From contig NZ_JADCDB010000016.1 of the NCBI RefSeq assembly GCF_020252395.1, positions 1 through 64,000 on the forward strand: DNA of 64,000 nucleotides, written 5' to 3'. The notes under the pieces are model-generated. The model had not been told where the DNA came from. It made no database searches and was given only the letters and a program-made list of their open reading frames with translations. Shown piece after piece: positions 126 to 16,583 of this stretch; position 1 is the first letter of the stretch; each line of letters starts with the position of its first letter. The DNA comes from Aestuariivirga sp. (GTDB lineage: Bacteria > Pseudomonadota > Alphaproteobacteria > Rhizobiales > Aestuariivirgaceae). A program made the position numbers and the translations under genes.

Positions 126-1352
126 TTAGCTATCGACACCTGCAGCTTGCGCGGCCATAAGCTGCTTCTGGCTGGGCAGGAACATCGCCAGGAGTCCGAA
201 ACCCGGCAGAAAGGAGCAGACGTGGAAAACGAAGCCGATGGAGGTCCAGTCCGCCACGATGCCCAGGAGTGCGGCACCCGCTGCCCCAATGCCGAAGGCC
301 AATCCGAAGAACAGGCCTGAGATCATGCCCACCCGCCCCGGCATCAGCTCCTGCGCGAAGACCAGCATGGCCGAGAAGGCAGACGCGAGGATGAAGCCGA
401 TGGGCACGGAGAGCACCACCGCCCAGAAGTGGTTGGCATAGGGCAGGGCCACGGTGAAGGGGAGCGCGCCCAGCACGGAGAACCAGATGACGGCCTTGCG
501 CCCGATCTTGTCGCCGATGGGGCCACCCAGCAGCGTGCCCGAGGCGAAGGCCGCGAGATAGATGAACAGGTCGATCTGCGCCTCCTTGGGGCTGAGGCCG
601 AAAGTGTCGATCAGGTAGAAGGTGTAGAAGCTCGACATCGAGGAGGTGTAGACGAATTTCGAGAACATCAGGCAGAGCAGCACGGCGAGCGAGGTGACAA
701 CCATGCGCTTCGGCAGCGGACTCACGGGCACGGCGCTGCGCCTGGCCGCGTTCTTGGGCGAGAGGTGATGGGCATACCATTTCGCCGCATAGCTCAGCAC
801 CGCGACGGAGAGCAGCGCCAGCAGCGCCAGCCATGCGACACTGCCCTGGCCATGCGGCACGACGAAGAAGGCGGCGAGCAGCGGCCCGATGGAGGTGCCG
901 AAATTGCCGCCCACCTGGAACACCGACTGCGCGAAGCCGAAGCGCCCGCCTGATGAGAGGCGCGCCAGCCGCGAGGCCTCCGGATGGAAGATCGACGAGC
1001 CGATGCCGATGAGCGTGGCGCCGGCGAGGATCATCTCATAGCTGTGGGCAAGGCCAACGACCACGAGGCCCACCAGCGACAGGGCGGGCGCGATGGGCAG
1101 CGAATAGGGAAAGGGCTTCCGGTCGGTGTAATGCCCGATCAGCGGTTGCAGCACCGAAGCCGTGGCCTGGAAGGCCAGCGTGATGAAACCCACCTGGGCG
1201 AAGCTCAGGTTGTGCAGGTCCCGCAGCAGCGGATAGATCGAGAGAAGCAGCGCCTGCAGCGTGTCGTTGATCAGGTGCCCCGCGGTGACGGCGAAGAGCA
1301 CCGCATAGGTCGTGGTCTGGACGCGGGCGGGGGCGATGTGGGTGGTGGCCAT
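126..1352 (-). CDS. MFS transporter, fosmidomycin-resistance (Fsr) type
   Basis: A 408-residue inner-membrane exporter of the major facilitator superfamily with about twelve hydrophobic segments. The N-terminal part (HLINDTLQALLLSIYPLL, then a GHYTDRK loop after the second helix) and the GGPIGDKIGRK repeat after the eighth helix are typical of the Fsr branch, whose best known member exports fosmidomycin in E. coli. The ATG at 1352 opens directly before the conserved region; no strong ribosome binding site is seen. It is followed on the same strand by nothing within the window and is preceded by a LysR gene on the same strand, 111 bp away. The substrate cannot be read from the sequence, so drug resistance is only a family label. 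Confidence 0.85.
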   Translation of the reverse strand: MATTHIAPARVQTTTYAVLFAVTAGHLINDTLQALLLSIYPLLRDLHNLSFAQVGFITLAFQATASVLQPLIGHYTDRKPFPYSLPIAPALSLVGLVVVGLAHSYEMILAGATLIGIGSSIFHPEASRLARLSSGGRFGFAQSVFQVGGNFGTSIGPLLAAFFVVPHGQGSVAWLALLALLSVAVLSYAAKWYAHHLSPKNAARRSAVPVSPLPKRMVVTSLAVLLCLMFSKFVYTSSMSSFYTFYLIDTFGLSPKEAQIDLFIYLAAFASGTLLGGPIGDKIGRKAVIWFSVLGALPFTVALPYANHFWAVVLSVPIGFILASAFSAMLVFAQELMPGRVGMISGLFFGLAFGIGAAGAALLGIVADWTSIGFVFHVCSFLPGFGLLAMFLPSQKQLMAAQAAGVDS

Positions 1353-1463
1353 GGGGAGTGCCTAGCGGGATTTGGCGGGGATGGCCAATGCCGGATGGGC
1401 AGGTTGGGTATGTGCGCGGTGGCCTTTCCTCTCCCCCGGTGGGGGACAGGAATAGATCGGGCC

Positions 1464-2381
1464 TTACTTCCCCTTCGCCGTCGACAGCAGCCAGTCCTTG
1501 AAGGTGTCCAGCGCCTCCGTCCGCCGGGCGATGCCGGAGGCGGGTTCGATGATCGAGTAGGCGTAGTCGTGCTTGATGTCGATGTCGAAGAGCTGCACGA
1601 GGCGGCCCGAGGCGAGGTCGTCGGCGATCAGGCTCCGGGGGCAGAGGGCGATGCCCTGGCCAGCCAGTGCTGCGGCGCGCAGCAGGTTGAAGTCCTGGAA
1701 GATGGGGCCGGGCGAGGGGCCGGCGTGCTTCAGGCCCGCATGGCGCATCCAGTTCTGCCAGTCCAGCCGGTCGGTGTCATGCAGCAGCGGCTTGCCGAGG
1801 ATCGCCTGCGGCACGTCGAAGGGACCCTCCTTTTCGAGGTAGATGGGGTTGCAGATCGGCACCGTGCTGCCGGGCAGGAGCCTCGTCGAGCGGCAGCCCT
1901 CCCATTCGCCGGGGCCCCAGAGCACCGCGATATCCACTTCGTCGAAGTCGATCTTGTGACCGGCGAAGGCATAGACCACTTTGACCGAGATTTCCGGATG
2001 CTCCCGGAAGAACTGCGACAGCTTGGGGATCAGCCAGATGGTGGCGAAGGAAGGGAGTGCGGCGATGGTGAGCGCCGGGCCCTGTTCGCTCTGCTGGAGG
2101 CGGCGGCAGGCGGCGGACATGATGTCGAAGGCCTCCGCCAGCGACCGGGCCAGGTCCTGGCCCTTCTGGGTGGGCATGGTCTGGCGGCCCAGCCGGTCAA
2201 ACAGGGTAAGGCCGAACCACTGCTCAAGCTGGCGGACCTGGTGGCTGACGGCCGACTGGGTAACGTTCAGCTCCTCCGCTGCCCTGGAGAAGGAGCCCGA
2301 GCGGGCGGCGGCTTCGAAGCAGCGAAGCGCATTGAGGGAGGGCAGGCGGGACACCGGGATGGCTCCATGAGGAAAACTCAT
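1464..2381 (-). CDS. LysR-family transcriptional regulator, GcvA-like
   Basis: A 305-residue one-component regulator. Residues about 8-65 form the winged helix-turn-helix (LPSLNALRCFEAAARSGSFS, AAEELNVTQSAVSHQVRQLE), followed by a type-2 periplasmic-binding fold for an effector. The wording of the HTH is that of the GcvA/AmpR group. I chose the ATG at 2381; an upstream in-frame start at 2420 would add 13 residues that fall outside the family alignment and run into the shared promoter region. The gene is divergent from creatinase with 84 bp between starts, the classic LysR/target layout, so it probably controls creatine or sarcosine use. The effector is inferred, not shown. Confidence 0.88.
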   Translation of the reverse strand: MSFPHGAIPVSRLPSLNALRCFEAAARSGSFSRAAEELNVTQSAVSHQVRQLEQWFGLTLFDRLGRQTMPTQKGQDLARSLAEAFDIMSAACRRLQQSEQGPALTIAALPSFATIWLIPKLSQFFREHPEISVKVVYAFAGHKIDFDEVDIAVLWGPGEWEGCRSTRLLPGSTVPICNPIYLEKEGPFDVPQAILGKPLLHDTDRLDWQNWMRHAGLKHAGPSPGPIFQDFNLLRAAALAGQGIALCPRSLIADDLASGRLVQLFDIDIKHDYAYSIIEPASGIARRTEALDTFKDWLLSTAKGK

Positions 2382-2403
2382 GGAGTATGTGAGGGATCGT
2401 CTT

Positions 2404-2434
2404 TTGACACAAGGCCTCATTCGGGGAAGTTATT
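2404..2434 (+). promoter_or_regulatory. Candidate promoter of creatinase in the LysR/creatinase divergent region
   Basis: A consensus -35 hexamer TTGACA lies at 2404-2409. The best -10 candidates are GTTATT (2429-2434) or a neighbouring register, giving a longer than ideal spacer of 19 bp, as expected of a promoter that needs an activator. The 84-bp region between the two divergent starts should also hold the LysR binding site, but I could not pick a convincing T-N11-A box. Confidence 0.35.
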
Positions 2435-2465
2435 CCGTACATTTCAAACCCGGGAAAACGCCGTC

Positions 2466-3737
2466 ATGAACCTCGCACGTCCTGCGCTCGTCGACTATCG
2501 CAACAATGGCAAGAAGCCAAAGCCGACCTTCTCGGACGCCGAGATGCAGCGCCGCCAGGACGGCATCCGCGGCTGGATGAAGACCGCCAAGGTCGATGCC
2601 TGCCTGTTCACCAGCTACCACAACATCAACTATCTCTCGGACTTCCTCTACTGCTACTTCGGCCGCAAGTATGGCCTGGTCATCACGCCGAACAAAGCGA
2701 CCTCGGTGACCGCCGCCATCGACGGCGGCCAGCCGGCGCGCCGCACCTTCGGCGACAACGTTACCTATACCGACTGGTCGAAGGAAAACTACTTCGTCGC
2801 CATCCAGGGCCTGATGAAGGGCGCCAAGCGCATCGGCATCGAGTTTGACCATGTGAACCTCGACTTCAGGAAGCAGCTCGCGGACGCCTTCCCCGGAGTC
2901 GACTTCGTCGACGTCGCCGCTCCCTCGATGAAGCTGCGCATGATCAAGAGCGCGGAAGAGATCAAGCACATCACCAAGATGACGCGCATCGCCGACATCG
3001 GCGGTGCGGCCTGCGTGGAAGCCATTGCCGTGGGCGTGCCGGAGCACGAGGTGGCGCTGCATTCGACGCAGGCCATGGTGCGCGAAATCGCCAAGGTCTG
3101 GCCGCAGGGCGAGCTGCTCGACACCTGGACCTGGTTCCAGTCGGGTGTGAACACCGATGGTGCGCACAACCCCGTCACCTCGAAGAAGATCAGACGAGGC
3201 GACATCCTGAGCCTCAACTGCTTCCCGATGGTGGCGGGCTATTACGTCGCCCTCGAGCGCACGCTCTTCGCCGAGACGGCATCGAAGGAGCACATCCGCC
3301 TGTGGGAGATCAACTGCCACGTCCATGACGAGGGCAAGAAGCTGCTCGTCCCCGGCGCCAAGTGCTCGGACGTCGCCAAGGCGCTGAACGAGATCTATGC
3401 CAAGCACGATCTCCTCAAGTACCGCACCTTCGGCTATGGCCATTCCTTCGGCGTGCTGTGCCACTACTACGGCCGCGAGGGAGGCCTCGAGCTGCGCGAG
3501 GATTGCCACACGGTGCTCGAGCCCGGCATGGTCGTCTCGATGGAGCCGATGATCATGATCCCCGAAGGCCAGAAGGGTGCCGGCGGCTATCGCGAGCATG
3601 ACATCCTGGTCATCACCGAGAAGGGCAACCGCAACATCACCGGTTTCCCCTATGGCCCCGAGCACCTCATCGTGAAAGCCGGCGGCGGGTCGAAGAAGAA
3701 GGCGGCGCCGAAGAAGGCCGCCAAGAATAAGCGCTGA
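2466..3737 (+). CDS. Creatinase (creatine amidinohydrolase), M24 fold
   Basis: A 423-residue cytoplasmic homodimer-type enzyme (EC 3.5.3.3) that hydrolyses creatine to sarcosine and urea. The match to Pseudomonas creatinase, as I remember it, is close along the whole length: FTSYHNINYLSDFLYC near residue 45, WTWFQSGVNTDGAHNP with the catalytic His at residue 234 (His232 in the P. putida enzyme), GDILSLNCFPM, YRTFGYGHSFG and VLEPGMVVSMEPMIM. The Lys/Ala-rich tail after residue 405 (repeats of KKAAPKK) is an addition absent from the classic enzyme. An open frame extends far upstream to 984, but it crosses the LysR gene antisense; the ATG at 2466 begins the family alignment. Sarcosine made here can be used by the soxBDAG products encoded from 19906. 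Confidence 0.93.
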   Translation: MNLARPALVDYRNNGKKPKPTFSDAEMQRRQDGIRGWMKTAKVDACLFTSYHNINYLSDFLYCYFGRKYGLVITPNKATSVTAAIDGGQPARRTFGDNVTYTDWSKENYFVAIQGLMKGAKRIGIEFDHVNLDFRKQLADAFPGVDFVDVAAPSMKLRMIKSAEEIKHITKMTRIADIGGAACVEAIAVGVPEHEVALHSTQAMVREIAKVWPQGELLDTWTWFQSGVNTDGAHNPVTSKKIRRGDILSLNCFPMVAGYYVALERTLFAETASKEHIRLWEINCHVHDEGKKLLVPGAKCSDVAKALNEIYAKHDLLKYRTFGYGHSFGVLCHYYGREGGLELREDCHTVLEPGMVVSMEPMIMIPEGQKGAGGYREHDILVITEKGNRNITGFPYGPEHLIVKAGGGSKKKAAPKKAAKNKR

Positions 3738-6859: not shown

Positions 6860-7660
6860 ATGCTGAAGTTCGTCATTCTGCTCTCGGTGCTGGCTTATGT
6901 GGCGATTGCCGGCTTCATGTATCTGCAGCAGCGCAGCTTCCAGTATCACCCCGCGCACAAGGGCACGCCGCCGCAAGCGCTGGGCCTTTCGGGTGTTACC
7001 GAGGAGCGGGTCAAGACGCCCGACGGCGAGACCATCGTGCTGTGGTACGCCCCCGCCCAGCCGGGCCAGCCCACCGTACTGTTCTTCCACGGGAATGGCG
7101 GCGAGATCGCCGACCGCAGCGAACGTTTCGCCTTCCTGCAGGCGCAGGGCTTCGGCGTGCTCTTCCTCTCCTATCGCGGCTATGGCGCGAGCACGGGTGC
7201 GATCTCGGAACAGGGGATCATCACCGATGCGCTGACGGCTTATGAGTTCCTCATCGCCAAGGGCGTTTCACCCCGGCAGATCATGCTGCTCGGCGAATCG
7301 CTCGGCACCGGCGTTGCGGTGCAGGTGGCCGCGCGGAAGCCGGTCGCAGCCGTGGCGCTGGAGGCGCCCTATACCGCAACCGTCGACATCGCGGCGGAGA
7401 CCTACTGGTGGCTGCCGGTGCGCCTGCTGATGAAGGACCAGTTCCGCTCGCGCGATTACATCGGAAAAGTGAAGGCGCCGCTGCTGATCCAGCATGGCGA
7501 CGCGGACACCATCGTCCCGGTGGCCCAGGGCCGTGCCCTCTTCGCCATGGCCAATGAGCCAAAGCAGCTGGTGATCGTTCCGGGCGGCACGCATGACGCG
7601 GTGTTCGACAGGGGCGTGTGGGAGCGGGAGGCAGCCTTCCTGCTGGGGACGATCCGGTAA
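6860..7660 (+). CDS. Membrane-anchored alpha/beta hydrolase (ABHD13/Bem46-like)
   Basis: A 266-residue serine hydrolase with one N-terminal membrane segment (residues about 3-22). The nucleophile elbow is GESLG (residues near 148), the acid is in QHGDADTIVP and the catalytic His in GGTHDAVF. The oxyanion strand VLFFHGNGGE and the SYRGYG loop are typical of the Bem46/ABHD17 group, some of which act as depalmitoylases in eukaryotes; bacterial members have no fixed substrate. It starts two bases after the dehydrogenase stop codon and ends the four-gene run that begins with the ABC ATPase. Confidence 0.85.
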   Translation: MLKFVILLSVLAYVAIAGFMYLQQRSFQYHPAHKGTPPQALGLSGVTEERVKTPDGETIVLWYAPAQPGQPTVLFFHGNGGEIADRSERFAFLQAQGFGVLFLSYRGYGASTGAISEQGIITDALTAYEFLIAKGVSPRQIMLLGESLGTGVAVQVAARKPVAAVALEAPYTATVDIAAETYWWLPVRLLMKDQFRSRDYIGKVKAPLLIQHGDADTIVPVAQGRALFAMANEPKQLVIVPGGTHDAVFDRGVWEREAAFLLGTIR

Positions 7661-7775: not shown

Positions 7776-10700
7776 ATGGACAGCTATCCGGTTCGCCAGC
7801 AATACGTATCCGACACGCCGGTTCAGCTTCTGGCCAGGCCGGTGGGAGCGCTACTCTCCGTTTCCGTCGGGGCGGTGGCGCTTCTGGATGGTCTTGGCGT
7901 CAAGAGCGTGTTTGATCTCGGCGCATCTATGCTGTTCGGCACGGCACGGGCGATCGTGGAGGCCGCATCGGGCGTCCAGTCGATGCGGGCGATGGCGGTC
8001 TCGCGCGACATGATCGATTCCACTGTCGCGGATCTCACCCTCGCCGAACTGGCCGACCAGCCGCTGACGGCGCTGCGCATCGTCGATGCGCAACTGGGCC
8101 AAGCCATGGCCACGGCCTTCGGCACGGTAACAGTGCGTGAGCTTGCCGCCTGGCCGCCGTACCGGGCTGCACGGCGCATTTTCAATGACGCCTATGGCTT
8201 CGCAAATCAGCTGACTGACGACCCGGAGCGCCCCGCCGAACTCGTGCCCACGGCGCGCCAATACGCGACCGAGCGCGTCCAGTACGACGTGCTGGTTCTC
8301 GACCATGTGCTCGAGCCCGTGGACGAGGATGAGCGGCCCCGGTTGGATCTGAACCTGGGGATGATGGTCCCGGACTGGAACGGCAACGGCGGAACGCCCC
8401 GCGTCGAACTTGATGACGTGTTTCTCTTCAAGAAGAGCTTCGACATCCGCAATGCGGGCGGCATCGACGTGGCCGACATCGTGGCCGCGACGCTGATCGC
8501 CCAGCCGGCGGTAGGTGCCATCCTGACCTACCGCCAGAGCTGGTTCCAGCATGGTCTGGCGTTGGGCCAGCTGCTGCACTCGCTGGCGCTGGCACCGGGG
8601 GAGAGCACGCGCATCGCACTTGTGGACTGGACGCGCCGCGTGCGTGCCTCGAGCGACGAGTTCACAGAACAGATGGAGGCTTTGAGCGCCAGCGTCGAGC
8701 GTAACCGCTCCATCAGCGAGGTCACCTCCGCCGTGGCGCGCGAGGCGCAACAGGGCTTTTCCGAGTCCTCCACCACCGCCACCGCGCGTCAGACGGCCGA
8801 AACCGCCGGTTCTGCGGGGGTCGCGGCCTCGACCCCGGGGCTGCTCGGCGTCCTGGAGGCGGCGGTGTTCGGCGGCGACACCGCCTCGGTGGGTGTGCGC
8901 TCGACGGGCACGTCCTCCGCCACCTCCACCAACACCGGCTGGGCCTCCTCGCGCGCCTCTTCATCGGGCGAACGCACGCTGACGGGCGAGATGATGCAAA
9001 ACGTCTCCGACCGCACCCAGCAGGCGGCCAACAGCACCCGCAACCGCCGTGCCACGGCGGTCACCGAAAGCTCCCAGTCCGAAAGCGAGAAGCTTTCGAC
9101 CCGTGTGGTCACCAACTACAATCACATGCATGCGCTGAGCGTGCTCTATTTCGAGGTGGTGCAGGTTTACCGCGTGGTGCTTGAGGTGGCGCGGGCCACG
9201 TCGGCGCTGTTCCTGCCGATGAAGCTCGTGACCTTCAGCGAAACTGTCATCCGCCGCTATCGCAGCGTGATCGCAGCAGTGGGGCTGACGCCGGAGGTGC
9301 GCTCGCTTGCCATGGCGCGCGCGGGCCAGCTCGCCATCGCCGCGCCGCGCCGCCTGTTGTGGAACCGCGCCTTCCTGACGGAGGTCAGCAAGACGCTTGG
9401 CCTTCAGGTTGGGAACCCGGCGGATGCCGTGATCAACCTGCCGCTCAGCGAGCTGAAATTCTTCCAGGTGGGATCGTCCGATCAGGCCTTCTTCGATAAT
9501 TTCTCAGGGGTCGCCGTGACCATGGCGAATGGCGCGCGCAGCGTCATCCCCATTGGGGACCGCAAGGAGGCGCATAGCGCCTGGACGGGGCGATTCGGCG
9601 CTGGCCTGCCGCAAGTGGATGCCCGCGAGATCGCGCGGATCGATCTCATCCAGAAGAAGGGTGAATTCGAGGGGGTCATCGAACTCCTCCTCTCCTTCGA
9701 CGGGCGCCAGCCGGACGGCAAGCCGTGGTCTTATGCTCTGGATGTGCCTGTGATGGCCCTGAGCGTCAGCATTGAATGCCGCAAGGAGAAGGTGACGCCC
9801 GCCTTCGTCATGACTCCCGCCATCGGCAACAGCGATCTGATCGCGCATCTGGAGGAAAATGCGCTGCATTATTCCTCCGCCATCTGGCGCTCGCTCGATT
9901 CGGCGGCGATCACCACGCTGCTGGGTACCTACAGGCTCGGCGGCCAGCGCTTGATCGAGGTGATCGACCCCGTGCCAGCGGCGGTCTCGGGTAACTACCT
10001 CGTGTTCCGCTTCTATGGCGACCTCGGCACGGAGGCGTGGGAGGCGCTGCAAGAAAAGCTCGGCGAGGATGCCACCCCGCGGGAGGACATGGTGCCCCTG
10101 CCCAGCGGCGGCGTTTTCGCGGAAGCCGTACTGGGCCGTTCCAACGCGGCCGAAAAGCTCGACATCACGCGGTTCTGGAACTGGCAGGACTCGCCCATTC
10201 CCATCCTGCCCTCCGAGATCAGCCCGCTCAGTGCGGGCGGCAAGGCGAATGACAAGACGCCCCAGACGGGCGCACTCGAGGGCTCGATCGTCAACATCGT
10301 CAACCCGCCGTCGCTGCCTGATCCCGCAGGGCTAGGGCCCCTCTATTCCGCGGTCGCCAATGGCGGCATCTTCCGCGACATGAGCGGGCTCGCCCAGACG
10401 AGCGCCCTCGTCGGCGCGGCACTGCAGGCCGCACAGGCGGGTGCCGCAAACGCCACGGGTGCAGCGGGCGAGGCGCAGAGGGTGGCAGCCCAGCAATTGA
10501 CAGAGGTCCTGAAGATCGCCGCACAGGTGGCACTCGCCGCCATGACGGGCGGCGGCAGCGCTGGCCTGAGCGCGCTTGGCGCCATTGGTGGTGCGGCGGC
10601 AGGTGGGGCTCCGGCCAAGCCCGGCGTCGCCAATACGCCGTCCAATGCCGGGGCGCTGATCAACCACGGCGCCGCGATGGATGCCCGGCCCCAGTCAGGT

Positions 10701-11720
10701 TCACCCGCTCCGGGAGGGGGAGGAGGCACGCCAACCCCCAGCAGCGGCATGGCACCACGCGGCGGCGCAGGCAGCGGAGGACAGACAACCAGCCGCGAAG
10801 CCCAGGCGGCTGACGTGGCGCTGACCGGTTCTGGTGGCGGGGGTGGGCCTTACAGCCTTCTCAACAAGGCGATTCAGGATACGATCCTGGCGGCGGCTCC
10901 ATCTCCTGTTTCGGCATCACCTCCGCCCGCGGATAGGTGGTGCTGCGCGCTGATGTTCAATGACGCCATCGAGCCCGCCAGCGTGACCGGCCACCGGTAC
11001 AATTCCTCGAGCACGAGCAATTGCGGCTATGTCTATACGGAGAAGGCCGGGCTGATCGATATCGGGCATATCCGCGATCATGTCGATCTCACCAAGCATG
11101 TCTATGACGAGATCGAGAAGGAAGTGCCGGTCATCCGTTGCCGGGAAGGCGTGGCGCGCCTGCTGTCTTCGCCGTCCGACAAGGTCCTGCTTGCCGAGGC
11201 CATTGCCTTTGTGGATTCCTGGGCTCATGAACTTCGGACCTATGAGGCAAAGGACGACTTTTCGTCCTTCTCGCCGGAGGACATGGTGTCGAATTTCCTT
11301 GGCACCTACATCGGCGGTATGGCGCTGAAGGGCGGAGGCGCGGCTTCCGTGCCGGCCTTCAACGCGATCGTCGATACGCTGCTGGCGGGCCTTCTCGCCG
11401 ATCTGGGCGCCCGGTCCGCGGCGGACACGGAGGCTGTCATCGCATCGAAGAAGGGAACTGGAAAATGGTTCGATAGCTTTCCGCCGCGGCTCCTTCGCCG
11501 CAACTTCGAGGTCGTGCCATGGCCTGCCGGCATGCCCTACGACAAGTCCCCAGCACCGGCCTACATCAGCCTTGCCAGGCTGACGCCGCAGTTCGCCGAG
11601 TTCGAGTTCGACCTCAAGGAACCGTTGTATGATCGTTCTCGCCCGGCGCTTGCCGACTTCCCGGCGGCGACAGCGAAGATACGCGCACCCTTTGCGGCGG
11701 CGGGAACGGACAAGCCTTGA
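7776..11720 (+). CDS. Large multi-domain protein of unknown function (possible C-terminal DUF4056)
   Basis: 1314 residues with no signal peptide. I do not recognise the bulk of it. Visible parts: residues about 20-150 hold two helical repeats resembling helix-hairpin-helix units (LLDGLGVKSVFDLG and a related second copy); 240-310 has a conserved-looking core (FQHGLALGQLLHSLALAPGE); 310-440 is a long Ser/Thr/Ala/Glu-rich, low-hydrophobicity helical stretch; near 450 is YNHMHALSVLYFEV; 880-1040 is an Ala/Gly/Pro-rich linker; 1050-1200 starts with RWCCALMFND and holds GYVYTEKAGLIDIGHIRDHV, which resembles DUF4056. The middle (residues 560-830) looks like beta-rich domains. It has its own promoter and is followed convergently by an amidase. 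No enzymatic function can be assigned. Confidence 0.8.
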   Translation: MDSYPVRQQYVSDTPVQLLARPVGALLSVSVGAVALLDGLGVKSVFDLGASMLFGTARAIVEAASGVQSMRAMAVSRDMIDSTVADLTLAELADQPLTALRIVDAQLGQAMATAFGTVTVRELAAWPPYRAARRIFNDAYGFANQLTDDPERPAELVPTARQYATERVQYDVLVLDHVLEPVDEDERPRLDLNLGMMVPDWNGNGGTPRVELDDVFLFKKSFDIRNAGGIDVADIVAATLIAQPAVGAILTYRQSWFQHGLALGQLLHSLALAPGESTRIALVDWTRRVRASSDEFTEQMEALSASVERNRSISEVTSAVAREAQQGFSESSTTATARQTAETAGSAGVAASTPGLLGVLEAAVFGGDTASVGVRSTGTSSATSTNTGWASSRASSSGERTLTGEMMQNVSDRTQQAANSTRNRRATAVTESSQSESEKLSTRVVTNYNHMHALSVLYFEVVQVYRVVLEVARATSALFLPMKLVTFSETVIRRYRSVIAAVGLTPEVRSLAMARAGQLAIAAPRRLLWNRAFLTEVSKTLGLQVGNPADAVINLPLSELKFFQVGSSDQAFFDNFSGVAVTMANGARSVIPIGDRKEAHSAWTGRFGAGLPQVDAREIARIDLIQKKGEFEGVIELLLSFDGRQPDGKPWSYALDVPVMALSVSIECRKEKVTPAFVMTPAIGNSDLIAHLEENALHYSSAIWRSLDSAAITTLLGTYRLGGQRLIEVIDPVPAAVSGNYLVFRFYGDLGTEAWEALQEKLGEDATPREDMVPLPSGGVFAEAVLGRSNAAEKLDITRFWNWQDSPIPILPSEISPLSAGGKANDKTPQTGALEGSIVNIVNPPSLPDPAGLGPLYSAVANGGIFRDMSGLAQTSALVGAALQAAQAGAANATGAAGEAQRVAAQQLTEVLKIAAQVALAAMTGGGSAGLSALGAIGGAAAGGAPAKPGVANTPSNAGALINHGAAMDARPQSGSPAPGGGGGTPTPSSGMAPRGGAGSGGQTTSREAQAADVALTGSGGGGGPYSLLNKAIQDTILAAAPSPVSASPPPADRWCCALMFNDAIEPASVTGHRYNSSSTSNCGYVYTEKAGLIDIGHIRDHVDLTKHVYDEIEKEVPVIRCREGVARLLSSPSDKVLLAEAIAFVDSWAHELRTYEAKDDFSSFSPEDMVSNFLGTYIGGMALKGGGAASVPAFNAIVDTLLAGLLADLGARSAADTEAVIASKKGTGKWFDSFPPRLLRRNFEVVPWPAGMPYDKSPAPAYISLARLTPQFAEFEFDLKEPLYDRSRPALADFPAATAKIRAPFAAAGTDKP

Positions 11721-11744
11721 GTGATCGAGGTCCTTGCTGGCCGC

Positions 11745-13202
11745 TCAATAACCCGGCGGCGGCACGAAGCCGCCGTATTCCTTCTCCAGCAGTTCGGCGA
11801 AGCGGATGGAGGTCATGTCGCCATATGCCCGCGTGATGATCTGGATGCCCGCTGGAAGCCCTTGCGGCGTGAGGCCCATCGGGGCGACCGTTGAGGGCAG
11901 GTAGAAGCAGCCGGAATAGCCTGCCCAGAACAGCTGGTCGGTGGTGGGCACGCGCTTGTTGTTCACCGGGATCGTGCGCTCGTGGCGCTCGCCCGCATGG
12001 TCGTGCGGGAAGGCGGCAGACGCCGCGGCGGGGCAGATCATTACGTCCCAGTCGTTGAAGAACTGGTCCCACAGGAGCCGCATCTGGTGGCGGCGCTCGT
12101 TGTATCTGAGCCAGTCGCGGTGCGGCAGCACATAGGCACGCAGCATCTTGATGAGGTAGCTGTCATTCCTCGGATCGGAGGCCGCGACCCTGGCGGAATT
12201 GGCCGCGAACTCCGCATCCGACTGGCGGCGGCTGGTGGCCGAGCGCAGCAGCGCGATGTAGACGTCCATCGCCTCTTTCGTGGTGAAGGCGGGGCGGGCG
12301 GTGGTGGAGAGCTTCTTCACCCGCTTGCCGAGGAACTGGGTGAGCTTGCCGATCAGGTCCTGAACGCTCAAGTCCACCTCCGACTGCTCGTCGGTAACCA
12401 TCACGGCTACGCGGAACTCCTTGAGCGTCTTCTGCGGCGCGGGCGGAAGGATGAGGGCATAGCCGCGGGCATCGGGGCCGACGGGTCCCGCGATGATCTT
12501 CATCATCGCCGCGAGGTCGCGCGCCGAGCGGGCCAGCGGTCCGGCAACGGTGATGTCGCCCGGCTGCACCACGCCCGGCAGCAGGTGGCCCTGATAGGGC
12601 ACGACACCCCAGGTGGGCTTGTGGCCATAGACGCCGCAGTAGTGCGCCGGATTGCGTATCGAGGCGCCGATGTCGGAGCCGATCTCGAGGGCCGACATGC
12701 CGGTGGCGAGCGCTGCCGCCGAGCCACCCGAGGAGCCGCCGGGTGCGCGGGTCAGGTCCCACGGGTTGTTGGTGGTGCCGTAGATGGCGTTGTAGCTCTG
12801 CCAGTCCGCCAGCATGAGGGGCACATTGGTCTTGCCATAGACTACCGCACCTGCCGCCTCCAGCCGCTGTATGGCCACCGCATCGGTGGAGGCGATATTG
12901 TCCTTGAAACGCGGGTCGCCCCAGGTGGAGGGAAGGCCCTTCATGTCGAAGCTTTCCTTGGCCGTCATCGGCACGCCGTCGAAGGGGCCGATGGGCTTTC
13001 CGGCCGTTAGCCGCCGGTCCGCCGCGCGGGCGGCCTTTTTGGCGCGCGGGATGTCGGTCACCACCACGGCGTTGAGCGCCTTGTTGTGGGCCTGGTACTG
13101 GCCGAGGCAATCCTCCAGCAGGGCGGAGGCGGTGGTCTTGCCTGAGCGCAGCAAGCGGGCGAGCTCGGTGGCGGAGCGGAAGTGGAGGGGAAGGGCGGGC
13201 AT
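11745..13202 (-). CDS. Amidase signature (AS) family hydrolase
   Basis: A 485-residue amidase. The Ser-cisSer-Lys triad is visible: Lys in PMTAKESFDMKG (near residue 80), the Gly/Ser-rich GGSSGGSAAALATG with the cis-Ser (near 155), and the nucleophile in GSDIGASIRNPAHYCG. It hydrolyses amide bonds of small molecules; AS members range from GatA to indoleacetamide and fatty-amide hydrolases, and nothing here identifies the substrate. It is not GatA, since no gatB/gatC are nearby. ATG 13202 is chosen because an AGGAGA ribosome binding site precedes it; the in-frame start at 13250 would add 16 residues. It is divergent from the EamA permease gene. Confidence 0.88.
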   Translation of the reverse strand: MPALPLHFRSATELARLLRSGKTTASALLEDCLGQYQAHNKALNAVVVTDIPRAKKAARAADRRLTAGKPIGPFDGVPMTAKESFDMKGLPSTWGDPRFKDNIASTDAVAIQRLEAAGAVVYGKTNVPLMLADWQSYNAIYGTTNNPWDLTRAPGGSSGGSAAALATGMSALEIGSDIGASIRNPAHYCGVYGHKPTWGVVPYQGHLLPGVVQPGDITVAGPLARSARDLAAMMKIIAGPVGPDARGYALILPPAPQKTLKEFRVAVMVTDEQSEVDLSVQDLIGKLTQFLGKRVKKLSTTARPAFTTKEAMDVYIALLRSATSRRQSDAEFAANSARVAASDPRNDSYLIKMLRAYVLPHRDWLRYNERRHQMRLLWDQFFNDWDVMICPAAASAAFPHDHAGERHERTIPVNNKRVPTTDQLFWAGYSGCFYLPSTVAPMGLTPQGLPAGIQIITRAYGDMTSIRFAELLEKEYGGFVPPPGY

Positions 13203-13294
13203 GGCTTTCTCCTGTCGGGGCCAGCCTATCGCCGCATGCCAGAACTGCAATCGCCTTGGCTGACGGGCAGGTCTGCACGGTATAGAGAGCGGGG

Positions 13295-14900: not shown

Positions 14901-16481
14901 TCAGCTGACGTTGTCCGGCAGCACTTCCTTGCGCTTGGCCATGAAAGCCTGCAGCGCCTCGTCGATGCCTTCGTCGAGCGGCGGGGCCTGATAGTCGCGC
15001 AGCATCTGCTTCCAGCGTTCGTTGGCGCGGACCACGATGTCCTTCTCCCCCTCGTCGCGCCACTGCTCGAAGGAGTTGTTGTCAGCAAGGCCCGAACGCC
15101 AGAAGGCGGTTTCGAAATTGGCCTGGGTATGCGCGCATCCCAGGTAATGCGAGCCGGGGCCCACTTCGCGGATGGCGTCCAGCGCCTGGCCGTTCTCGGA
15201 GAAGTCCACGCCCTCGGCGAACTTCTGGTACATGGTCAGCTGGTCGGCATCCATGATCAGCTTTTCATAGCCCGAGGCGAGGCCGCCTTCGAGCCAGCCC
15301 GCGGCATGGAGGCAGAAATTGACGCCCGAGAGCAGCGTCGACCACATGGTGTTCGCACTCTCGTAGGCCGCCTGCGCATCCGGAAGTTTCGAGCCGCAGA
15401 GGCTGCCGCCGGAGCGGAAGGGAACGCCCATGCGGCGCGCGAGCTGGGCCGCACCGAAGGTGACCATGGCGGGCTCGGGGCTGCCAAAGGTGGGTGCTCC
15501 CGACTGCATGGACATGGAGGCCGCGAAGGTGCCGAACACCACCGGCGCACCGGGACGGCAGAGTTGGGTGAAGGCGATTCCGACGGAGGCTTCCGCCAGG
15601 ATCTGAGTGAGCGTGCCCACCGTGGTCACGGGCGACATGGCCCCGGCCACGATGAAGGGCGAGATCACGGTCGCCTGGTTGGCGCGCGCCAGAACCTTCA
15701 GCGCGCCGAGCATGACGCCGTCCCACACCATAGGCGAATTGGCGTTGATCAGCGAGGTCATCACGCAGTTCCGGTCGACGAAGTCCTTGCCGAAGACCAT
15801 CTCCGCCATGGCCACCGAGTCGGCCGAGCGTTCGCCCGCCGTCACCGAGGCCATGAAGGGCTTATCGGAATACTTGATGTGGGTGTAGATCATGTCGAGG
15901 TGGCGCTTGGCCACGGGAATGTCCACGGGCTCGCACAACGTGCCGCCGGCGTGGTGAAGGCTGGGCAGCATATAGACGAGCTTGGCGAAGTTGCGGAAGT
16001 CCTCGATCGTGGCGTAGCGGCGGCCCTCGTCGAGGTTGCGGATGAAGGGCGGGCCATAGACGGGAGCGAAGACCGTGTTGTTGCCGCCGATCGTCACGTT
16101 GTTGGCCGGGTTGCGGGCATATTGCACATATTCGCGCGGGGCGGTCTTGATCAGCGAGCGGACGAGGCCCCTGGGGAAGCGCAGGCGGAAGCGCTTGGGA
16201 TCGCTGGCAGACGGCTTCACGTCGGCGCCGGCGGCCTTCCACATGCGGACGGCTTCCTCGTCCTCATAGATGTCGAGGCCCACTTCCTGCAGCACCGTCT
16301 CGGCGTTGGTCTCGATCAGCTCCAGCTGCTCGTCGGTAAAAGGCTCATAAGACCTGATGGCGCGGCGGATGAAGCCTGACTGCTTGACGGTGGTCGAGGT
16401 GCGGGCGGCGCGGCGGGCATCGGCGCCGCCACGGGCGCGGCGGCCGGAGGACGGAGCGGATGCGGGCTGGACGTCGGTCAT
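14901..16481 (-). CDS. Trimethylamine methyltransferase (MttB) family protein without pyrrolysine
   Basis: A 526-residue member of the MttB superfamily, TIM-barrel corrinoid methyltransferases. True trimethylamine MttB needs an in-frame UAG for pyrrolysine; this frame is continuous, so it belongs to the non-pyrrolysine group, whose characterised members demethylate quaternary amines such as glycine betaine, proline betaine or carnitine. Family stretches include YVQYARNPANNVTIGG, DKPFMASVTAGERS, VVFGTFAASMSMQSG and HYLGCAHTQANFETAFWRS. The N-terminal 45 residues are Ala/Arg-rich and disordered. The start at 16481 is chosen over 16508 because the latter adds only nine unmatched residues. No cognate corrinoid protein or reductive activator is in the window. 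Confidence 0.87.
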   Translation of the reverse strand: MTDVQPASAPSSGRRARGGADARRAARTSTTVKQSGFIRRAIRSYEPFTDEQLELIETNAETVLQEVGLDIYEDEEAVRMWKAAGADVKPSASDPKRFRLRFPRGLVRSLIKTAPREYVQYARNPANNVTIGGNNTVFAPVYGPPFIRNLDEGRRYATIEDFRNFAKLVYMLPSLHHAGGTLCEPVDIPVAKRHLDMIYTHIKYSDKPFMASVTAGERSADSVAMAEMVFGKDFVDRNCVMTSLINANSPMVWDGVMLGALKVLARANQATVISPFIVAGAMSPVTTVGTLTQILAEASVGIAFTQLCRPGAPVVFGTFAASMSMQSGAPTFGSPEPAMVTFGAAQLARRMGVPFRSGGSLCGSKLPDAQAAYESANTMWSTLLSGVNFCLHAAGWLEGGLASGYEKLIMDADQLTMYQKFAEGVDFSENGQALDAIREVGPGSHYLGCAHTQANFETAFWRSGLADNNSFEQWRDEGEKDIVVRANERWKQMLRDYQAPPLDEGIDEALQAFMAKRKEVLPDNVS

Positions 16482-16583
16482 GTCAAAGGCCTGTTGAACA
16501 GTTTTCACCTGAGGTGTGGTTTACGCGCTCCTCGCCCTGGCGGCGTGAAGGGAAACGTCAGGCGATGGTCGGGAAACGACGCC

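What the first reader, a model, noticed from the sequence alone, without database searches (positions are those of the whole stretch)
7776..11720. A 1314-residue protein with no recognisable enzyme domain and its own promoter
This is the longest gene in the window. The sequence shows two helical repeats at the N-terminus, a conserved-looking LALAPGE core, a long Ser/Thr/Ala/Glu-rich region around residues 310-440, beta-rich middle domains, a Gly/Pro/Ala linker and a Cys-containing C-terminal domain that resembles DUF4056. No signal peptide or membrane segment is seen. The layout is that of a large structural or toxin-like effector, but no delivery genes are adjacent. That it is a new kind of multi-domain effector or scaffold is inference.
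Basis: partly seen in the sequence, partly recalled or inferred. Interest (0 to 1): 0.8.

Follow-up and report, generated by a model that had tools for sequence, protein, structure and literature searches.

The report
Toxin-like carrier with swappable enzyme tails
The long protein is one member of a widespread, largely undescribed family in bacteria and salt-loving archaea that keeps one carrier part and swaps its tail end for different domains; here the tail looks like an enzyme that cuts membrane lipids, so it is probably a weapon against other microbes.

Summary
The 1314-aa gene is real, but "no recognisable enzyme domain" is wrong. Residues ~1054-1280 match DUF4056 (E 2.8e-16), the CapCone-DUF4056 branch of the Lipocone (Wnt/TelC) superfamily. 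The published His, Glu and Asp active-site positions are intact.

Residues 1-~970 are a carrier without Pfam, NCBIfam or PADLOC match in the window protein. It recurs in many bacterial phyla and haloarchaea (265 of 401 candidate stretches; plasmids). Seventy-one tails over 230 aa form 40 BLAST clusters, among them DUF4056, Hedgehog N-domain, DUF2272, M15 and OmpA.

Tail exchange is directly visible. In L070 two tandem genes share 2971 identical bases, then diverge. Between the window and a same-genus genome, fourfold-site divergence is 0.025 in the tail and 0.32-0.45 in the flanking genes. The gene sits between two genes that abut in 9 of 16 gene-lacking relatives.

No signal-like stretch, family-specific neighbour or, in this clade, sheath gene was found. 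The model shows HhH-like repeats, a C2/PLAT-like domain, and long strands resembling aerolysin-type pore formers only weakly.

Best reading: a polymorphic-toxin-like effector whose delivery is unproven; self-delivery through a pore is the bold version.

The parts
7776..11720 (+). Whole gene, 1314 aa: carrier (residues 1-~970), linker, C-terminal lipocone tail
   Evidence: single copy in own genome
7776..8195 (+). Residues 1-140: two tandem helix-hairpin-helix-like repeats
   Evidence: AlphaFold2 model, pLDDT mostly above 90; weak HhH hits of relatives, below the curated cut-offs, and of the profile to DNA polymerase IV, E 0.38
8508..9221 (+). Residues 245-482: core 1, long beta strands (245-288, 435-482) around a helix-tip-helix insertion; invariant G247 W256 G264 L272 P274 E276 R422 R443 N447 N449 H450 H452
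8754..8969 (+). Residues 327-398: hypervariable Ser/Thr/Gly/Ala tip, modelled at low confidence (pLDDT mostly under 50) as two ~19-residue strands and a short helix
9324..9824 (+). Residues 517-683: variable beta-sandwich resembling C2/PLAT lipid-binding domains
9828..10415 (+). Residues 685-880: core 2 (FAEAVLGRSNAAEKLDITRFWNWQDSPI...FRDMSGL)
   Evidence: invariant G779 E783 G787 E793 R799 F800 W803 S806 P807 in 69 of 69
10641..10688 (+). Residues 956-971: junction motif SxxGAxxNxxxxMDxR at the end of the carrier
   Evidence: strict form [SNT]xxGAxxN in 48 of 87 members; tail-less actinobacterial members end near a similar stretch
10935..11720 (+). Residues 1054-1314: DUF4056 tail (CapCone-DUF4056 lipocone), predicted active site H1098, E1152, D1169 with G1092, S1163, S1166, N1173
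   Evidence: Pfam; alignment to 13 standalone DUF4056 proteins; published signature
10800..12000 (.). Recombination tract: tail plus 3' end of the amidase gene, 94.5-99.5% identical to G006 in 200-base bins, against 75.5-97.5% over 7800-10799 and 73.5-86.5% over 12000-13199; the left edge is gradual
6860..7660 (+). Upstream flank: alpha/beta hydrolase, not part of the system; one side of the insertion site
11745..13250 (-). Downstream flank: amidase, convergent; other side of the insertion site

Best explanation
The protein is a modular antagonism effector built like a polymorphic toxin. A conserved ~970-residue carrier ends at a junction motif, after which one of many unrelated cargo domains is attached by recombination. 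In this genome the cargo is a CapCone-DUF4056 lipocone enzyme that probably cleaves or swaps phosphate-linked head groups of membrane or polyisoprenoid lipids (phospholipids or lipid II-like carriers) in a rival microbe. The carrier probably binds the target surface through its C2/PLAT-like domain. It may insert the Ser/Thr-rich hairpin of its long-stranded core into the membrane to let the tail through. Shown here: the modular swapping, the intact lipocone signature, the horizontal spread of gene and tail. Inferred: the enzyme's substrate, use against rivals, membrane binding and insertion, delivery.
For: Tails: 71 tails over 230 aa fall into 40 BLAST clusters, or 31 by looser phmmer linkage; 18 of 89 rows have no tail above that length. 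Among 56 of 69 aligned members with such tails, 44 of 54 pairs at 60-70% core identity and 13 of 53 pairs at 70% or more have tails without detectable similarity. L070: two tandem genes share 2971 identical bases, then unrelated tails. Window against same-genus G006: 4 of 161 fourfold sites differ in the tail, against 81 of 250 in the amidase and 52 of 116 in the hydrolase; the highest-identity tract covers the tail. Empty site in 9 of 16 gene-lacking relatives. Core tree puts the window and G006 beside a Saprospiraceae and an Accumulibacter sequence (100/96 and 100/100 support; both are binned genomes). Named tails lean to envelope targets or anchors: DUF4056, M15, Hedgehog/DD-peptidase, DUF2272, OmpA, and a CHAP match below cut-off. 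Two haloarchaeal carriers (recalled: archaea lack murein) have DUF2272 and M15_4 tails, which fits an outward target. Lipocone signature intact.
Confidence: 0.62

Rival explanations
1. Same kind of effector, but the carrier is not a pore: it is cargo of an export or lysis route encoded elsewhere (contractile injection, prophage lysis, vesicles), and the carrier is a packaging or docking part. (Overlaps the best explanation except for delivery.)
For: 23 of 51 carrier genomes tested have a phage-sheath gene over the cut-off, against 3 of 14 control genomes (most binned genomes among the loci were not given to that call); no signal-like stretch seen in 84 members. A paper reports that archaeal peptidoglycan hydrolases without signal peptide are somewhat enriched in genomes with a sheath gene, P 0.059 (PMC12352652, passage).
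Against: None of the 5 genomes of the window's own clade has a sheath match, and 28 of 51 overall are below the cut-off. No sheath or tail gene family recurs beside the gene.
Confidence: 0.3
2. An intracellular defence or suicide effector: cytoplasmic, and unleashed on the cell's own membrane on phage attack.
For: No signal-like stretch, patchy distribution and horizontal transfer fit defence genes; lipocones also occur in antiviral immunity (PMC12419801, section heading and abstract). One plasmid carrier (L014) lies near restriction, TIR-domain and toxin-antitoxin genes.
Against: No PADLOC match in 7 family proteins; the window's neighbours are metabolic or transport genes. Hydrolase-type tails aimed at peptidoglycan in haloarchaea do not fit intracellular suicide.
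Confidence: 0.1
3. A surface or matrix protein or lipid-housekeeping enzyme, not a weapon.
For: OmpA, SH3 and Ig-like tails could be anchors; tail-less members exist; no immunity gene.
Against: In its own genus 2 of 37 genomes have it as a core-wide match (a third has a weak linker match); it is inserted between two conserved genes; tail exchange far exceeds background.
Confidence: 0.2

Closest known systems
CapCone-DUF4056 lipocones (Burroughs, Nicastro, Aravind 2025, PMC12419801)
   Same: The window tail carries the signature: Gly six before the H2 His, H3 Glu, S/GxxSxx before the H4 Asp, Asn four after it.
   Different: The 13 standalone DUF4056 proteins aligned are 353-455 aa. The paper's list of lipocones used as toxin tips names CapCone-1 and CapCone-2 but not CapCone-DUF4056 (passage); the carrier is not described in the sections and passages I read; figures and supplements were not seen.
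DUF4056 protein proposed as a T6SS effector candidate in Salmonella Kentucky (PMC11669294)
   Same: A DUF4056 domain suggested as an effector (one passage).
   Different: It is an ORF in a T6SS cluster, in a two-gene unit; the window gene has no such neighbours and a large carrier.
[quoted passage not shown] 2012, PMC3482391; passages seen)
   Same: Conserved N-terminal part with highly variable C-terminal domains exchanged by recombination.
   Different: No secretion leader of the listed kinds recognised, no coupled immunity gene in the window, and a carrier without a Pfam, NCBIfam or PADLOC model in the window protein.
'Broken-hairpin' toxins (PMC12419801, section 31)
   Same: Many unrelated toxin domains on one conserved module, tending to lack signal peptide, secretion system and immunity gene; the module itself proposed as trafficking device.
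   Different: There the module is a short C-terminal beta-hairpin; here it is a ~970-aa N-terminal carrier.
Bacterial Hedgehog (bacHh) proteins (Roelink 2018, PMC6027127, section 6)
   Same: [quoted passage not shown] probably this carrier. L041 and L038 carry such a tail (profile to PDB Sonic hedgehog, E 3.7e-54).
   Different: The text treats the Hedgehog domain, not the carrier; its figure could not be seen, so identity of its N-terminal domain with this carrier is inferred.
Aerolysin-type beta pore formers (parasporin-2, C. perfringens enterotoxin, lysenin; grouping recalled)
   Same: Long strands with a Ser/Thr-rich insertion; 5 of the 7 listed rows whose model range covers the core strands or tip are from these three proteins.

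Membership tests
Lipocone superfamily, CapCone-DUF4056 | Pfam DUF4056 match over curated cut-off | tested here: met
   60.1 bits, cut-off 23.6
Lipocone superfamily, CapCone-DUF4056 | H2 His with Gly six upstream; H3 Glu; SxxSxx before H4 Asp; Asn four after it | tested here: met
   G1092/H1098, E1152, S1163/S1166/D1169/N1173 aligned with 13 standalone proteins (10 of them)
Lipocone superfamily, CapCone-DUF4056 | Four-helix cone with beta-hairpin clasp and cap | tested here: inconclusive
   Tail model from 2 sequences has mean pLDDT 35.8
Lipocone superfamily, CapCone-DUF4056 | Lipid head-group enzyme activity | not testable with these tools
   Needs biochemistry
Polymorphic toxin | Conserved N-terminal part with C-terminal domains exchanged by recombination | tested here: met
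Polymorphic toxin | Adjacent immunity gene | tested here: not met
   Convergent amidase 25 bp downstream; in relatives at least 11 of 62 tailed genes have a close same-strand ORF, function unknown. So filed as polymorphic-toxin-like, not as a classical member
Polymorphic toxin | Recognisable secretion leader or secretion genes nearby | tested here: not met
   no dedicated signal-peptide predictor was available
Contractile-injection (eCIS) cargo | Injection system in the genome | tested here: not met
   PF04984 in 0 of 5 genomes of the window's clade, its own included (two of the five are drafts with 6% contamination); 23 of 51 carriers over the cut-off in all
Aerolysin-type beta-pore-forming toxin | Long twisted beta domain with insertion hairpin | tested here: inconclusive
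   [not shown]
Aerolysin-type beta-pore-forming toxin | Oligomeric pore in membranes | not testable with these tools
   Needs liposome or conductance assay

The most novel reading that the evidence does not exclude
A self-delivering toxin chassis used by both bacteria and archaea: an aerolysin-like beta-pore core with a C2/PLAT membrane-binding domain docks on a target cell, threads its Ser/Thr-rich hairpin into the membrane and passes an exchangeable C-terminal enzyme through, without any secretion machine. Its cargo set includes distant relatives of both Wnt (lipocone) and Hedgehog.
Probability: 0.22. Interest if true: 0.93.

Novelty: new variant of a known kind. Interest (0 to 1): 0.74.

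Why it matters
It places DUF4056, a lipocone family not on the published toxin-tip list I read, on a swap-in carrier, and gives a natural home to the bacterial Hedgehog domain, whose function was left open in 2018. A single carrier bearing relatives of two animal signalling proteins, in bacteria and archaea, bears on where such domains come from. It is testable: one gene, one junction motif, defined catalytic residues, and a clear pore prediction.

Tried and rejected
Phage or prophage origin: no PHROG match; no relative in viral contigs for the family (0 of 9 pattern stretches), for the window's tail (0 of 9) or for DUF4056 (0 of 17). The phage collection gave 3 partial hits, one to core 2 and two to the DUF4056 tail. 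Rejected as main reading.

Contractile-injection cargo: not supported for this clade (0 of 5 genomes with sheath), open elsewhere (23 of 51).

Defence system: no PADLOC match for 7 full-length proteins.

Neighbours: among 85 loci the families recurring in 4 or more were response regulators (11), ABC ATPases (9), integrases (6), kinases (5), four families shared by four Paenibacillus genomes, and one mixed group of 4. The integrases may reflect mobility; not followed up.

Known solved structure by sequence: none convincing for the carrier. The A5 tail profile gave only chance hits. My readings of A4 tails as caspase-like, A5 as papain-like and A6 as HExxH metallopeptidases are by eye; A4 and A6 were not searched further and none was confirmed.

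Prevalence: the alignment found 8 of 299 Pseudomonadota genomes, but only 3 (G000, G328, G443) match over the core; 5 match only the N-terminal region (model positions up to 168) and are probably unrelated HhH proteins. P0001 matched 6 of 100 relatives and 5 of 69 family genomes, one of them (G007) a weak linker match.

Literature: searches (open PMC papers only) showed no description of the carrier beyond the sentence in Roelink 2018; one search used a useless term. PMC12419801: abstract, outline, sections 7, 12, 31 and passages. PMC6027127: passages and section 6. PMC3482391, PMC12352652, PMC10318531, PMC11669294, PMC13324453: passages only. PMC12893001: outline and abstract. Other papers: listing only.

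Limits: no Prodigal or SignalP, so ORF starts and signal peptides are approximate. 'Tails similar' means phmmer E below 0.01, so remote homology is missed and cluster counts are upper bounds. The 89 rows include one genome twice (L018 = L060) and the near-copy L022; one search dropped L022 and L060. In one search small ORFs could be missed, as in L070.
Full report
What was checked. The frame 7776-11720 is open for 1314 codons and is the longest listed in the window. A 94% identical gene in a second genome of the genus (G006) shows that it is coding. The genome has one copy.

The tail is an enzyme domain. Pfam finds only DUF4056. A 2025 analysis (PMC12419801) places DUF4056 in the Lipocone superfamily with Wnt, SAA, TelC and VanZ, and predicts attack on phosphate-linked lipid head groups. 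The published signature of the CapCone group was tested on an alignment with 13 standalone DUF4056 proteins: Gly six before the H2 His (G1092, H1098), H3 Glu (E1152), S-x-x-S-x-x-D (S1163, S1166, D1169), and Asn four after the Asp (N1173). All are kept, as is a Cys pair (1056-1057). Among 398 sampled Pseudomonadota genomes 15 have a match and 13 are over the cut-off; 12 of these 13 have 353-455-aa proteins and the window's is the only one on a long carrier. The paper's list of lipocones recruited as toxin tips does not name CapCone-DUF4056 (passage); another paper suggests a DUF4056 ORF as a T6SS effector candidate in Salmonella (passage).

The carrier is a large family. Patterns from a 10-sequence alignment gave 401 stretches in species genomes, 265 of them relatives; 77 distinct loci were kept. 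Hosts include Pseudomonadota, Actinomycetota, Bacillota, Bacteroidota, Myxococcota, Nitrospirota, Acidobacteriota, Chloroflexota, Verrucomicrobiota and a haloarchaeon; plasmid records add Nostoc and Haladaptatus. In 69 aligned sequences (6 Legionella loci and several incomplete, duplicate or non-scan loci left out) 25 columns are invariant, concentrated in core 1 (residues 247-458) and core 2 (779-807). The regions between and inside them vary. In three actinobacterial members the middle matches Tectonin (E 4.5e-7, 0.0071 and 2.6e-4; only the first reaches the cut-off; 3 of 8 proteins scanned).

Tails are swapped. Of 89 rows, 71 have tails over 230 aa, in 40 BLAST clusters (31 by looser linkage). 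Pfam names a tail domain for a minority: of 70 scanned tails, OmpA 4, HH_signal 2, DUF2272 2, and one each of DUF4056, M15_4, SH3_3, CHAP, M15_3, Big_1, DUF3238, CarboxypepD_reg and SH3_4 (E up to 0.01; CHAP and M15_3 below their cut-offs). The Hedgehog tails match Sonic hedgehog structures at E 3.7e-54. Among 56 members with long tails, pairs with 60-70% core identity lack detectable tail similarity in 44 of 54 cases; at 70% or more in 13 of 53. In L070 two neighbouring genes are identical for 2971 bases and then end in unrelated tails. A strict junction motif, [SNT]xxGAxxN, lies at the end of the carrier in 48 of 87 members, and tail-less actinobacterial members stop near a similar stretch.

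The window gene has moved recently. It lies between an alpha/beta hydrolase and a convergent amidase. Of 17 further same-genus loci with the hydrolase, one (G006) has the gene. Of the other 16, 13 show the amidase: 9 with the two ends within 30 bp, one at 104 bp, and three at 366-1187 bp; in three loci no amidase lay within reach. Against G006, fourfold-site divergence is 0.025 in the tail (4 of 161), 0.10-0.50 across the carrier (highest in the hairpin tip), 0.32 in the amidase and 0.45 in the hydrolase. Identity peaks from about 10,800 to 12,000; its left edge is gradual, as 10,000-10,799 is already 94.5-97.5%. G006 is a binned genome (89% complete, 6% contamination), but its contig carries the diverged neighbours, so a stray contig of the window species is unlikely. 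On the core tree the nearest sequences after G006 are Saprospiraceae and Accumulibacter bins, which suggests transfer between phyla.

Direction of action. Haloarchaea lack murein (recalled), yet two of their carriers end in DUF2272 (Haladaptatus, E 1.1e-15) or M15_4 D-Ala-D-Ala carboxypeptidase (Salinigranum, E 1.1e-11) tails. DUF2272 is a papain-like family with Ser in place of Cys, discussed as possible peptidoglycan amidase (PMC10318531, passages). A recent paper reports archaeal peptidoglycan hydrolases that kill bacteria (PMC12352652, passages). This favours action on other cells. Against a classical polymorphic toxin: no immunity gene here, and a close same-strand downstream ORF in at least 11 of 62 tailed relatives.

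Verdict. The best reading is a polymorphic-toxin-like carrier with a lipocone tail; delivery is the open question.

Noticed in passing
L041:11473-12444 and L038:6221-7255: Tails with a Hedgehog N-terminal signalling domain (Pfam E 6.6e-54 and 1e-37) on the same carrier, in Micromonospora and Paenibacillus.
   Followed up: partly
L070:8764-16943: Two tandem family genes with 2971 identical bases and unrelated tails; a small ORF overlapping the first stop codon lies between them and could be a tail-linked partner (seen by eye).
   Followed up: partly
L011:12001-16074 and L058:7840-11652: Haloarchaeal carriers with peptidoglycan-hydrolase-type tails (DUF2272, M15_4).
   Followed up: partly
L019:7455-12987: A relative in G051 is split into two overlapping frames (frameshift or assembly error), second piece with an OmpA domain; left unmended.
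   Followed up: no
window 14904-16508 (-): Trimethylamine methyltransferase family (MTTB) protein, Pfam E 7.9e-223.
   Followed up: no
window 984-3737 (+): 917-aa ORF whose Creatinase_N and M24 peptidase domains occupy only residues 524-879; the ORF start may be too far upstream or the N-terminal half is an extra domain.
   Followed up: no
L017:4688-6915: On an E. coli plasmid a standalone DUF4056 gene follows a BamA/TamA-family outer membrane protein gene directly.
   Followed up: no
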